From: Acidimicrobiaceae bacterium
GTDB taxonomy: Bacteria > Actinomycetota > Acidimicrobiia > Acidimicrobiales > RAAP-2
DNA: 64,000 nucleotides
Assembly: GCA_947456245.1 (NCBI GenBank)
Contig: CANGPS010000001.1
Location: 1 to 64,000 of the forward strand
Direction of reading: 5' to 3'
Shown: in pieces, positions 59,817-64,000 of the stretch
Layout of the letters: each line of letters opens with the position of its first letter
How positions within the stretch are numbered: position 1 is the first letter of the stretch
Position numbers and translations under genes: made by a program
The notes under the pieces: model-generated
The model's database searches: none
What the model saw: the letters and a program-made list of their open reading frames with translations, nothing else
Told to the model about the DNA's origin: nothing

Positions 59817-62003
59817 TCAGGGGAGCGACGGCTGATCCTCGAGGCCGGCACCCTCGAGGTCGGCGTGCGGGAGCACCCGGTCGAGCCATCGGGGGAACCA
59901 CCAGGCCGTGCGGCCGAGGAGTGCCATCGCAGCCGGCACCAGCGTCATCCTGACCACGAAGGCATCGAGGAGCACCCCGGCGGCGAGGGCGAATCCGATC
60001 TCCTTGGTCACCAGCGTCTTGGAGATGACGAAGCTGGCGAAGACCGAGAACATGATGATCCCAGCGGCTGTCACGACGGGTCCTGATTCGAGGAACCCTC
60101 CCTCGATCGCCTGGTCCGGCTCCAGCCCCTGGACGTGACCCTCGCGCATGCGGCTGACGAGGAACATCTCGTAGTCCATGGCCAGGCCGAACAGGATCCC
60201 CACCAGCAAGATGGGGAGGAAGCTCACGACGGGACTGGTGGCGGGGAGCACCACCAGTCCACCGAGGTGGCCCTCCTGGAAGATCCAGACGACGGCCCCG
60301 AGGGTCGCGCCGATGGAGAGCAGGAACCCGAGCACGGCCTTGAGCGGGACCAGCACCGACCGGAAGACGATGGCCAAGATCAGCGCGGCGAGGCCCACGA
60401 CGACGAGCAGGTACAGCGGCAGGGCGGCACCGAGCTTGGCGGAGACGTCGATGTTCACCGCCGTTGGGCCCGTCACGTAGACCTTGGCACCGTAGGGGGC
60501 CGCCACCGCGGTGGCCCGACTGCGGATCTCGGCCACGAGTGACTCTGTCGCCGGCGAGCTCGGGCCGGACGTCGGGGTGACGATGACGACGGTTACCGTC
60601 TTGTCGGCGTTCTGCTCGGGCGGGCTCACGGAGGCGACGCCCCGCACGGCGCTGAGGTCCTTCACTGCGCTCGAGGCGACGGCCACCGGGTTGAGCCTCG
60701 GTGGTGCGTCGACCACCACGAGCAGGGGACCGTTGACACCAGGACCGAAGCCCCGGGCCATGAGCGAGTAGGCCGTCCGGGTCGGCGAGCCGACAGGGTC
60801 GGTTCCGGCCGACGGCAGACCGAGGCGCATCCCGAGGAGCGGGGAGGCGAGCAGCACCAGCAGCCCGACACCGACGAGGAGGACGAGCACCGGGTGGCTG
60901 GTGGAGGTCCCCACCCAGCGTCGGAAGAATCCCGGACGCCCGCCCTGTGATCGCACCCTCGGTGGCCGGATCCACCGTTGGGTCAGGCCGAGGAGGGCGG
61001 GGACCAGCGTGATGCCGATGAGGGCGGCCATGGCCACAGCGCCGGCAGCACAGAGGCCCATGATGGTCAGGAACGGGATGCCCGCCACCGAGAGCCCGAC
61101 GAGGGCGATGATGACCGTGGTCCCGGCGAAGACCACCGCGGTGCCGGCGGTCCCGGTGGCCCGCGCCGCAGCCGCCTCAGGGGCAAGCCCGCGGCCGAGC
61201 TCCTCCCGGTAGCGGTGCACGATGAAGAGCGCGTAGTCGATGGCCACCGCAAGGCCGATCATCGTGGCGAGGATCGGCGCGGTGGCCGAGAGCGGGATGA
61301 TGCCGCTGAGCGCGTTGATCGAGGTGAGGGCGATCGACACGCTGATGATCGCCGTCACCAGGGGCAGGCCGGCGAGGAGGAGGGAGCCGAAGCTGACCAG
61401 CAGGACGAGGTAGGCGACGAGCAGGCCGATGCCGTCCGATGGCTTCTCGGTCGGCTGCGGCACGATGCCACCCCCGTAGGCCACGACGACCCCGGCACGG
61501 TGCGCTGGGCCGGCGGCTGCGGCCAGGGCGGCACGGGCGTGCTCGGTGATGAGGTTGGCCGGCTCGGTGAAGGCGACGGTGGCGTAGCCGATCCGGCCAT
61601 CGGTGGAGATCGTCCGGTCGAGGTAGGGGTTCGAGGTGTAGACGACCTGGGGGGCGGTGCAGCGGAGCGACGGCACGGTGCCTCCGGTTCTGCCCTCGCC
61701 GTAGCAGGCGGCCGAGAGCGATGCCAGCACCCCGGCCCGGATCTTCGGGTCGGTCAACGTGGTCCCGGCTGGAGCCTGGAAGACCATTTGCGCTGATGCC
61801 CCTGAGGCCTGCGGGAACTTCTTGGTGAGCAGGTCCATGGCGACCTGCGACTGGGTGCCGGGGATCGTGAAGGTCGTGGACTCCGGCTTGGCGATGAGCC
61901 CTGAGAGGATCGAGACTCCGACGAGGATCGAGAGCCAGACGCCGATGACGAGCGTGCGGTGTCGGAAGCTCGCGCGGCCGATGCGAGAGATGAACGTCGC
62001 CAT
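59817..62003 (-). CDS. MMPL/RND-family transporter
   Basis: MATFISRIGRASFRHRTLVIGVWLSILVGVSILSG...; DYALFIVHRYREELGRG; MDYEMFLVSRMREGHVQG. Confidence 0.9.
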   Translation of the reverse strand: MATFISRIGRASFRHRTLVIGVWLSILVGVSILSGLIAKPESTTFTIPGTQSQVAMDLLTKKFPQASGASAQMVFQAPAGTTLTDPKIRAGVLASLSAACYGEGRTGGTVPSLRCTAPQVVYTSNPYLDRTISTDGRIGYATVAFTEPANLITEHARAALAAAAGPAHRAGVVVAYGGGIVPQPTEKPSDGIGLLVAYLVLLVSFGSLLLAGLPLVTAIISVSIALTSINALSGIIPLSATAPILATMIGLAVAIDYALFIVHRYREELGRGLAPEAAAARATGTAGTAVVFAGTTVIIALVGLSVAGIPFLTIMGLCAAGAVAMAALIGITLVPALLGLTQRWIRPPRVRSQGGRPGFFRRWVGTSTSHPVLVLLVGVGLLVLLASPLLGMRLGLPSAGTDPVGSPTRTAYSLMARGFGPGVNGPLLVVVDAPPRLNPVAVASSAVKDLSAVRGVASVSPPEQNADKTVTVVIVTPTSGPSSPATESLVAEIRSRATAVAAPYGAKVYVTGPTAVNIDVSAKLGAALPLYLLVVVGLAALILAIVFRSVLVPLKAVLGFLLSIGATLGAVVWIFQEGHLGGLVVLPATSPVVSFLPILLVGILFGLAMDYEMFLVSRMREGHVQGLEPDQAIEGGFLESGPVVTAAGIIMFSVFASFVISKTLVTKEIGFALAAGVLLDAFVVRMTLVPAAMALLGRTAWWFPRWLDRVLPHADLEGAGLEDQPSLP

Positions 62004-62309
62004 GGCGAGAGTGTAAGCACCGTCTTCGGCTTGAGGAAGATGGGACGGAAGGTGAACCGGGGTCGGCCCGTGCAGCAGAACCTCGGAAGCGTCCGCGCCC
62101 GGCCGGGCTCGAACCGGTGCGAGTGAAGCCGCTGATCGACGTGCTCGCCGGAGGTGAAGAGTCTGGCGCCCTCGCCGGTGAAAGTTCGAACCGGAGCGGG
62201 CGAACAAGCTGGCGTCCACCAGATGGCCACCTTGGTGACGGCATGCAGTCGCGGCGTCGTGTACGGTTCCGAATAACAAAATTCCAATCCACCAGATGAA
62301 GGAATAGTC

Positions 62310-64000
62310 ATGCAGGCAACAGCCACATTGAAGAAGGCGGGAACGACGCTCTGGGTGGTCCCAGTCGCCGTCCTGCTCGCGATCGTCTTCGGAACGTTCG
62401 GACACGCCCCGGCCGGTTCGGCTACGACCAAGTCGTCGCCGCACGTGACGCACCACGCGGTCTCCCCGCGCACGGTGGTCGTCGTCCCGCCGGACATGAA
62501 GTGCAAGCCCGGCATCTCGCTCTGGCTGTCAGGCCACAAGAAGTACGTGGCTGGCCTCAACTACGACCCTCGGACGATCGCAAAGCGCATCAAGTCCGAG
62601 CTGCCGCAGTGCGTCGGCAAGCAGCTGGTGCAGAACGGCACCGCTGATCACCCGGACGCCGGCGAGAAGTTCGGCGTGGGCTTCACCTACGACGCGGTCT
62701 CCTGCTCGAGCGCTGTGCCGTGCAACGGCGGACGCGGTGGCGAGATCCTCGGAAACGGTGGTGACGGCTACAACGGTGGCGACGGTGGCGACGCCGGCCA
62801 GTACGGCAATGGTGGCAACGGTGGCGTCGGCATCGCCGGCGCACCTGGCCTCGCAGGTGTCAACGGTGCCCTCCCGGGTGAGAACGGCGCCGATGGCACG
62901 ATGGGGTCGTGCGGTGACCGCGGTGGCGCTGGTGGCGCCAGCGGCTACCTGCTCGGCAACGGTGGAAACGGAGCGGACGGTGGCGCTGGTGGCGCTGGTG
63001 GCGCTGGTGGCGCGGGTGCGGTCGGGACGAACGGGGTCTTCCCTGACTCTGATGGTGGTGCTGGTGGCAACGGTGGCGTCGGTGGAGACGGTGGCGTCGG
63101 TGGAGACGGTGGTCTCGGCGGCGTCGTGCGCAACTCGACGGGTACGGCTGGCTATGACGGCCTCAGCGGCGCTGGTGGCGCCGGTGGTAACGGTGGAGAC
63201 GCTGGGTTCGGTGGTGCTGGTGCAGCTGCGCCCGCAGGCGCCAACGCGGTGAACTCGTTCACGAATGGTGCTGACGCAGCCGCTGGTGGCAACGGTGGCC
63301 CTGGTGGCAACGGTGGCGCCGGTGGCGCCGGTGGCCCGGGTGCCACGACCGGCATCGACGGCAACGGTGGCGCTGGTGGCGTCGGCGGACCTGGCGGCAA
63401 CGGCGGAAATGGTGGCCTGGCATGGGTCGGCGCCGACGGCGCGACCCCAGGTACGAACGGTCAGAATGGAACCAACGGCGGCTCTGGCGGCTCTGGCGGA
63501 GTTGGCGGTCCTGGTGGTCTCGGCGGTATCGCTGGTGGTCCGACGGGCACGGCAGGTGCTGACGCGATGGGCGGCGACGGCGGCAACGGCGGCGTGGCAG
63601 CAAACGGTGGCGCCGGCGGTAATGGCGCCGCAGGCGCTGACGGCACCGGTGGCTTCGGCGCCAGCATCGCTCGCGTTCCTCAGGGCGCCGCAAGCGTGAG
63701 CCTCCCGCCCGTCAACGTCGACGGCGGTAACGGTGGGACCGGTGGAAACGGTGGTCTCGCCGGCTACGGCGGCTACGGCGGCGCCGGTGGCACCGGTGCT
63801 GGCAGCGCCTCGAACGGCGATGATGGCAATGGTGCCGCTGGTGGAACCGGCGGCGCTGGCGGCAACGGCGGCTACGGCGGCGCTGGCTTCAGCCCGCTGG
63901 ACGGCACTGACGGCGGAAACGGCGGAAACGGCGGGGCCTCGGGCTTCGGCGGCGCCGGCGGTGGCGGTGGTGGGGCCGGTGGCCCTTCGGCCTCAGCCGG
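62310..64000 (+). CDS. Secreted Gly-Gly-X repeat protein (PE_PGRS-like composition), 3' end beyond window
   Basis: ATG 62310, SD GAAGGA; in-frame through 64000 with no stop: [40 protein letters not shown]...[41 protein letters not shown]...[43 protein letters not shown]...[32 protein letters not shown]. Absent from the ORF track because no stop lies in the window. Confidence 0.85.
62730..64000 (+). repeat. GGX codon-level repeat domain (GGNGG, GGAGG, GGDGG units)
   Basis: Continuous ggtggc/ggcggt-NNN pattern in the frame of the 62310 CDS. Confidence 0.9.

What the first reader, a model, noticed from the sequence alone, without database searches (positions are those of the whole stretch)
62310..64000. 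PE_PGRS-like GGX secreted protein missed by the ORF track
From ATG 62310 the frame stays open to the window end (563 codons). It has a signal peptide, a ~100-aa Cys-containing N-terminal domain (CKPG...LPQC...SCSSAVPC) and then >400 residues dominated by [12 protein letters not shown] units. PE_PGRS proteins are a mycobacterial hallmark with a PE domain and ESX secretion; here the N-terminus has no PE motif and there is no ESX locus in view. This suggests independent evolution of a polyglycine-II-type surface protein. The supplied track lists only out-of-frame ORFs here.
Basis: partly seen in the sequence, partly recalled or inferred. Interest (0 to 1): 0.62.

Follow-up and report, generated by a model that had tools for sequence, protein, structure and literature searches.

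The report
Cysteine-capped PGRS protein outside mycobacteria
A free-living relative of Microthrix (order Acidimicrobiales) has an intact gene for a 1305-residue exported glycine-rich protein whose head piece it shares with environmental mycobacteria, so PGRS-type proteins are not confined to mycobacteria and can do without the PE domain and ESX secretion.

Summary
The ORF is real and longer than the window: 62310-66227 of the contig, 1305 codons, with a Shine-Dalgarno site and Sec signal peptide. About 140 non-repetitive residues are followed by about 1165 residues of GGX repeats (47% Gly). There is no anchor; the stop follows ...GPVGEPG.

'Independent evolution' is not supported. After the signal peptide comes a helical mini-domain between two cysteines, then a ~70-residue 'cap' (NGTAxHPDAGxLxGNGFSYDAxTCxGxxxCNGGxGG...[13 protein letters not shown]) with an invariant cysteine pair. 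The cap recurs, always leading into GGX repeats, in Ca. Microthrix, Acidimicrobiales mtb01, lake MAGs and many environmental Mycobacterium/Mycolicibacterium species (60 of 249 genomes of one genus, up to 15 copies each), but in only 4 of 395 genomes of the window's class. Those I inspected carry export signals, not PE. Pfam's PGRS model hits weakly just past the cap, and the mtb01 protein also contains a classical PGRS head.

So this is a Cys-capped, PE-less variant of PGRS proteins. A 2025 review noticed PGRS proteins with 'questionable' N-termini in non-pathogenic mycobacteria. Function is inferred: an exported polyglycine-II surface scaffold. My structure models did not settle the repeat fold.

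The parts
62298..62303 (+). Shine-Dalgarno-like GAAGGA
   Evidence: sequence upstream of ATG 62310
62310..64000 (+). Cys-capped PGRS protein gene; 5' 563 of 1305 codons (continues to the stop at contig position 66225-66227)
62310..62423 (+). Sec signal peptide (aa 1 to about 35-38, APA or GSA cleavage site)
   Evidence: n-, h- and c-regions in the sequence; not run through a signal-peptide predictor
62493..62618 (+). helical mini-domain between Cys65 and Cys101 (aa 62-103), shared with mtb01, Microthrix and lake MAG homologues
   Evidence: helices at pLDDT about 60-75 in both models
62619..62831 (+). PGRS cap with invariant Cys pair (Cys132, Cys138), leading into the first [10 protein letters not shown] turns
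   Evidence: pLDDT about 78-88; PF21526 partial hit at aa 133-187
62727..64000 (+). GGX (PGRS-type) repeat region, aa 140-563 in the window, to aa 1305 beyond it
   Evidence: 47% Gly, 189 GGX, 37 runs
59817..62009 (-). divergent neighbour: MMPL-family transporter (not MmpL3 by curated cut-off); context only
   Evidence: PF03176 E 9e-91; NCBIfam MmpL3 236 bits against a cut-off of 1400

Best explanation
The gene encodes an exported, Sec-dependent PGRS-type surface protein. Shown from sequence: an intact 1305-codon gene; a signal peptide; a helical mini-domain framed by two cysteines; a conserved cap with a second cysteine pair; a very long GGX domain; no PE domain and no detectable ESX core in the genome; and homology of the cap with PE-less PGRS proteins of environmental mycobacteria and other Acidimicrobiales. 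Inferred: the chain crosses the membrane unfolded through Sec and the signal peptide is removed (Microthrix relatives have a lipobox instead). Outside the cell the two cysteine pairs close as disulfides, so that the mini-domain and cap form a rigid starter that sets the register for the first polyglycine-II helices. The GGX triplets then pack as a polyglycine-II sandwich, Gly inward, giving a flat acidic scaffold on the cell surface or in the matrix. In relatives the same cap-plus-repeat unit carries enzymes such as a GH64 glucanase, which points to a display or spacer role. The gene is a variant of the PGRS family in which the PE/ESX export head is replaced by a Sec signal and a Cys cap.
For: Intact ORF and coding evidence. 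N-terminal homology window/mtb01: BLASTP 2e-15, 34% over 86 aa, four Cys aligned. Twenty loci found by the two-sequence profile, including Microthrix, mtb01, lake MAGs and many Mycobacterium/Mycolicibacterium. In all 20 the cap leads into GGX repeats, and an export signal is recognisable in most. All 44 distinct full-length caps have exactly two Cys. PF21526 hits the window protein weakly (16.7 bits, cut-off 27). mtb01's protein has an internal head that scores over the cut-off in the genome search (31 bits). A third Acidimicrobiales genome has a signal-peptide PGRS protein at 42.8 bits without the Cys loop. No PE or EccB in three Acidimicrobiales genomes, both present in two mycobacterial controls. 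GH64 fusion. PG-II model for PGRS from the literature (PMC9436101).
Against: The repeat fold is not shown: AlphaFold confidence in the repeats was low. The only PDB matches, springtail polyproline-II-bundle antifreeze chains 7jjv, were not significant (E 1.2 and 1.4). Surface location, disulfides and function rest on inference. The regular short/long loop alternation expected of a 'sail' was not significant (P 0.23). The cap profile was built from Cys-bearing sequences, so Cys invariance is partly ascertainment. One copy in this genome and none found in five genus relatives means that it is dispensable.
Confidence: 0.66

Rival explanations
1. Independent (convergent) origin of a glycine-rich surface protein that merely resembles PGRS.
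For: GGX repeats arise easily; Pfam and NCBIfam give no family above cut-off for this protein; no PE or ESX.
Against: The non-repetitive cap with its Cys pair and NGTAxHPDAG motif is shared at 49-73% identity with Mycobacteriaceae, Microthrix and mtb01 proteins that all continue into GGX repeats. The window cap groups with Microthrix (100/94) next to a Mycolicibacterium cap (97/84).
Confidence: 0.05
2. The Acidimicrobiales copies were acquired from mycobacteria by horizontal transfer, rather than being inherited from a common actinobacterial ancestor (a question of origin, compatible with the main explanation).
For: Patchy: 4 of 395 class genomes against 60 of 249 genomes of a genus inferred to be Mycobacterium, often multi-copy. 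The window and Microthrix caps sit inside the mycobacterial part of the tree. In Microthrix the gene lies 0.2-1.4 kb from ssrA and in the window genome about 10 kb, a common insertion site.
Against: Only 70 columns; one clade of all non-mycobacterial caps is not rejected (p-AU 0.32). GC3 of the N-terminus matches the neighbouring genes, so any transfer is old. Apart from ssrA-smpB no neighbouring gene is shared with Microthrix.
Confidence: 0.5
3. The protein is a secreted ice-binding or desiccation-protective glycine-rich protein rather than a surface scaffold.
For: The only PDB structural matches of the model are springtail polyproline-II-bundle antifreeze chains, at non-significant E 1.2-1.4.
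Against: Match not significant and expected for any GGX sequence; very long chain with irregular loops; relatives fuse the module to a glucanase.
Confidence: 0.06

Closest known systems
PE-less PGRS proteins of environmental Mycobacterium/Mycolicibacterium (e.g. L045 M. vinylchloridicum, L050 M. pinniadriaticum); the review PMC11939664 reports PGRS proteins with 'questionable' N-termini in M. smegmatis and Mycolicibacterium
   Same: Cys cap, leading straight into GGX repeats; secretion signal in those inspected; no PE at the N-terminus
   Different: Mycobacterial ones have a long Ser/Pro/Ala-rich linker where the window protein has the C-C helical mini-domain; some carry C-terminal enzymes; their genomes also hold PE and ESX. 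I did not check that the M. smegmatis proteins of the review carry the cap.
PE_PGRS proteins of pathogenic mycobacteria (PF00934 + PF21526)
   Same: Long GGX domain entered through an L-x-G-N-G... head; helical segment before the repeats (literature)
   Different: No PE domain, no ESX in the genome, Sec signal peptide, Cys-bearing cap; PF21526 below cut-off in this protein
Acidimicrobiales mtb01 (L046/G210) and Ca. Microthrix (L041, L042) homologues
   Same: Mini-domain with two Cys, Cys cap, GGX domain
   Different: mtb01 is about 2000 aa and has a second, classical PGRS head; Microthrix proteins carry a lipobox (VSAC) instead of a cleavable signal (by inspection)
Springtail polyproline-II-bundle antifreeze protein (PDB 7jjv)
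   Same: Possible fold class, polyglycine/polyproline-II bundle (E 1.2)
   Different: No sequence relationship (no PDB sequence hit); arthropod; short

Membership tests
PE_PGRS | N-terminal PE domain (PF00934) | tested here: not met
   no Pfam hit at E<=1 in the N-terminus; no PF00934 in the genome, with positive controls; hhalign of the mini-domain against PE, probability 0.13%
PE_PGRS | ESX/type VII secretion available (EccB core) | tested here: not met
   no PF05108 in G000, G210 or G092; present in two mycobacterial controls; the genome is 92% complete
PGRS domain (Pfam PF21526) | Score above the curated cut-off | tested here: not met
   16.7 bits in the protein, 22.9 in the genome search; cut-off 27
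PGRS domain (Pfam PF21526) | Long GGX triplet domain following an L-x-(G)NG head | tested here: met
   189 GGX units, 37 runs; LVQNGTA head
Cys-capped PE-less PGRS proteins (set defined here) | ~70-aa cap with two Cys leading into GGX repeats | tested here: met
Cys-capped PE-less PGRS proteins (set defined here) | Sec or lipoprotein signal peptide | tested here: met
   by inspection of N-termini; no predictor available
Polyglycine-II fold proteins | Experimental or confident predicted PG-II sandwich | tested here: inconclusive
   repeat pLDDT low; 7jjv only at E 1.2

The most novel reading that the evidence does not exclude
Cys-capped, Sec-exported PGRS proteins are the older, general actinobacterial form of PGRS surface scaffolds, and the PE_PGRS proteins of pathogenic mycobacteria arose from them when the export head was exchanged for a PE domain; PGRS scaffolds therefore need neither ESX nor a mycomembrane.
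Probability: 0.22. Interest if true: 0.72.

Novelty: new variant of a known kind. Interest (0 to 1): 0.5.

Why it matters
PGRS domains are discussed almost entirely as part of PE_PGRS proteins of pathogenic mycobacteria, exported by ESX-5 and proposed to 'sail' on the mycomembrane (PMC9436101). Here the same kind of domain occurs with a Sec signal and a cysteine cap in Acidimicrobiales, whose genome shows no PE and no EccB and which are not known to make mycolic acids (background knowledge, not tested). That separates the PGRS domain from PE, ESX and pathogenicity. It gives a Sec-exported, disulfide-capped and possibly easier protein for the long-missing experimental PGRS structure, and it may explain PGRS proteins with odd N-termini in non-pathogenic mycobacteria.

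Tried and rejected
The first genome-contig scan with the single N-terminus found nothing. Weak N-terminus hits in G002 and G006 were proline/serine-rich exported proteins without GGX repeats and were rejected. A plasmid tblastn search gave no match. No PDB sequence match. Viral structure library: no match. The second, longer AlphaFold job was poor (pLDDT 46). Synteny: MMPL is 66-68% conserved in a genus relative (G003) and FUSC about 48% in two relatives, but none of these loci carries a PGRS gene. hhalign of the mini-domain against PE domains found nothing (the first of these used two wrongly framed PE rows, the second did not). Literature: no paper in the held library joins PGRS with Acidimicrobiia or Microthrix, and none uses 'PGRS-like'.

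Full report
OBSERVATION. The frame from ATG 62310 is open to the window end. The window is the first 64 kb of a 190.6-kb contig of a 2.34-Mb, 92% complete genome. There the frame runs on to a stop at 66225-66227, giving 1305 aa that end ...GPVGEPG without any anchor. Second-order Markov sequences with the gene's own statistics gave a longest stop-free frame of 328 codons on average and 740 at most. GAAGGA precedes the ATG, and GC3 of the N-terminal part is 0.885. The repeats are 47% Gly and 17% Ala, with 189 GGX units; the whole protein has 65 acidic against 18 basic residues and Cys at 65, 101, 132, 138 and 201. The gene is single-copy in the genome by its N-terminus.

RELATIVES. Pfam and NCBIfam name no N-terminal domain; only PF21526 (PGRS) rings, below its cut-off, at aa 133-187. 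Searching relatives with PF21526 found two more Acidimicrobiales proteins. One, in G210, has an N-terminus clearly homologous to the window's (BLASTP 2e-15). G210 is the same genome as Acidimicrobiales bacterium mtb01, since its contig has the same length, 195213, as NBNI01000004. A profile of the two found 20 loci in the named genome collection: two Microthrix-type MAGs (one mislabelled Bifidobacterium breve, but placed by the genome tool in the window's order, in the same family as the other; compare frames of 726 and 750 aa), mtb01, lake MAGs, and many environmental Mycobacterium and Mycolicibacterium species. In all of them the cap NGTAxHPDAGxLxGNGFSYDAxTCxGxxxCNGGxGG leads into GGX repeats. 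Most show a signal peptide upstream by inspection (a few loci were not shown far enough), and none shows a PE domain by inspection. All 44 distinct full-length caps have exactly two Cys. Because G210 and the Microthrix genomes are of the window's order, the window genome belongs to the order Acidimicrobiales; its family and genus remain unnamed.

TWO HEADS. In the Acidimicrobiales members (window, mtb01, Microthrix) and in the lake MAGs of unnamed taxonomy, a mini-domain of about 40 residues framed by two further Cys lies between the signal peptide and the cap. AlphaFold makes it a helical hairpin (pLDDT about 60-75) and gives the cap the best confidence of the model, 78-88. Mycobacterial members have a Ser/Pro/Ala-rich linker there instead. 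Microthrix proteins carry a lipobox (LVVVSAC), by inspection. G092 has a signal-peptide PGRS protein whose head lacks the Cys loop, and the mtb01 protein has a classical PGRS head further inside. These connect the Cys cap to Pfam's PGRS head.

PE AND ESX. PF00934 and PF05108 (EccB) are absent from G000, G210 and G092. They are strong in the genomes of M. vinylchloridicum and M. pinniadriaticum that also hold Cys-capped PGRS genes. hhalign finds no relation between the mini-domain and PE domains.

DISTRIBUTION. The cap occurs in 4 of 395 genomes of the class. In a phylum-wide draw of 397 it occurs in the window genome, G210 and two genomes of one other genus, with 7 copies each. In that genus, which I infer to be Mycobacterium because its caps interleave with named Mycobacteriaceae rows, it occurs in 60 of 249 genomes at E<=1e-15, with up to 15 copies. 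A 70-column tree joins the window with Microthrix (100/94) and both with a Mycolicibacterium cap (97/84), but a single clade of all non-mycobacterial caps is not rejected (p-AU 0.32). Transfer against descent stays open.

MECHANISM. Shown: intact coding sequence, export signal by inspection, conserved cysteine pairs, homology, absence of PE and EccB. Inferred: Sec export, disulfide closure of mini-domain and cap, the cap as register-setter for the first polyglycine-II helices, a PG-II sandwich as surface scaffold. The GH64 fusion (L049; L052 has a similar C-terminus by inspection) supports a display role. Not shown: the fold. Both models have low confidence in the repeats, the best PDB match is a polyproline-II-bundle antifreeze protein at E 1.2, and the short/long loop alternation was not significant.

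KNOWN WORK. PGRS domains are described as polyglycine-II sandwiches on the mycomembrane in PE_PGRS proteins (PMC9436101). A 2025 review notes clear PGRS proteins in M. smegmatis and Mycolicibacterium whose N-termini are 'questionable', and says that no PE/PPE domain is reported outside Mycobacterium (PMC11939664). I found no paper in the held library on PGRS in Acidimicrobiia. The library lacks most subscription papers, so novelty is stated only as a new variant of a known kind.

Noticed in passing
L008:16232-16577 (contig C1 about 76231-76576, beyond the window), L041, L042: ssrA (tmRNA) and smpB lie about 10 kb downstream of the PGRS gene; in two Microthrix-type MAGs the PGRS gene ends 0.2 and 1.4 kb from ssrA. 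No other neighbour is shared, so this may be chance or a shared insertion site.
   Followed up: partly
L041:5412-6455, L042:6479-7558, L044:4428-5465: A methyltransferase gene lies directly upstream of the Cys-capped PGRS gene in Microthrix and in a lake MAG; no such gene flanks the window's copy.
   Followed up: partly
L049, L052: In two Actinomycetes MAGs the Cys cap and a short GGX stretch precede a large protein; in L049 this carries Big_9/cadherin-like domains and a GH64 beta-1,3-glucanase, and L052 has a similar C-terminus by inspection.
   Followed up: no
L008:9851-13467 (beyond the window): Probable DabB-DabA inorganic carbon transporter pair (PF00361, PF10070) downstream of the PGRS gene.
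   Followed up: no
L041: Public record CAMAYJ010000059 is titled Bifidobacterium breve but the genome search places a matching genome (same 750-aa frame) in the window's order, in the same family as Microthrix.
   Followed up: partly
L044:5540-13364 and around 15397: The Loclat lake MAG has at least three Cys-capped PGRS heads within 10 kb, a local expansion.
   Followed up: no
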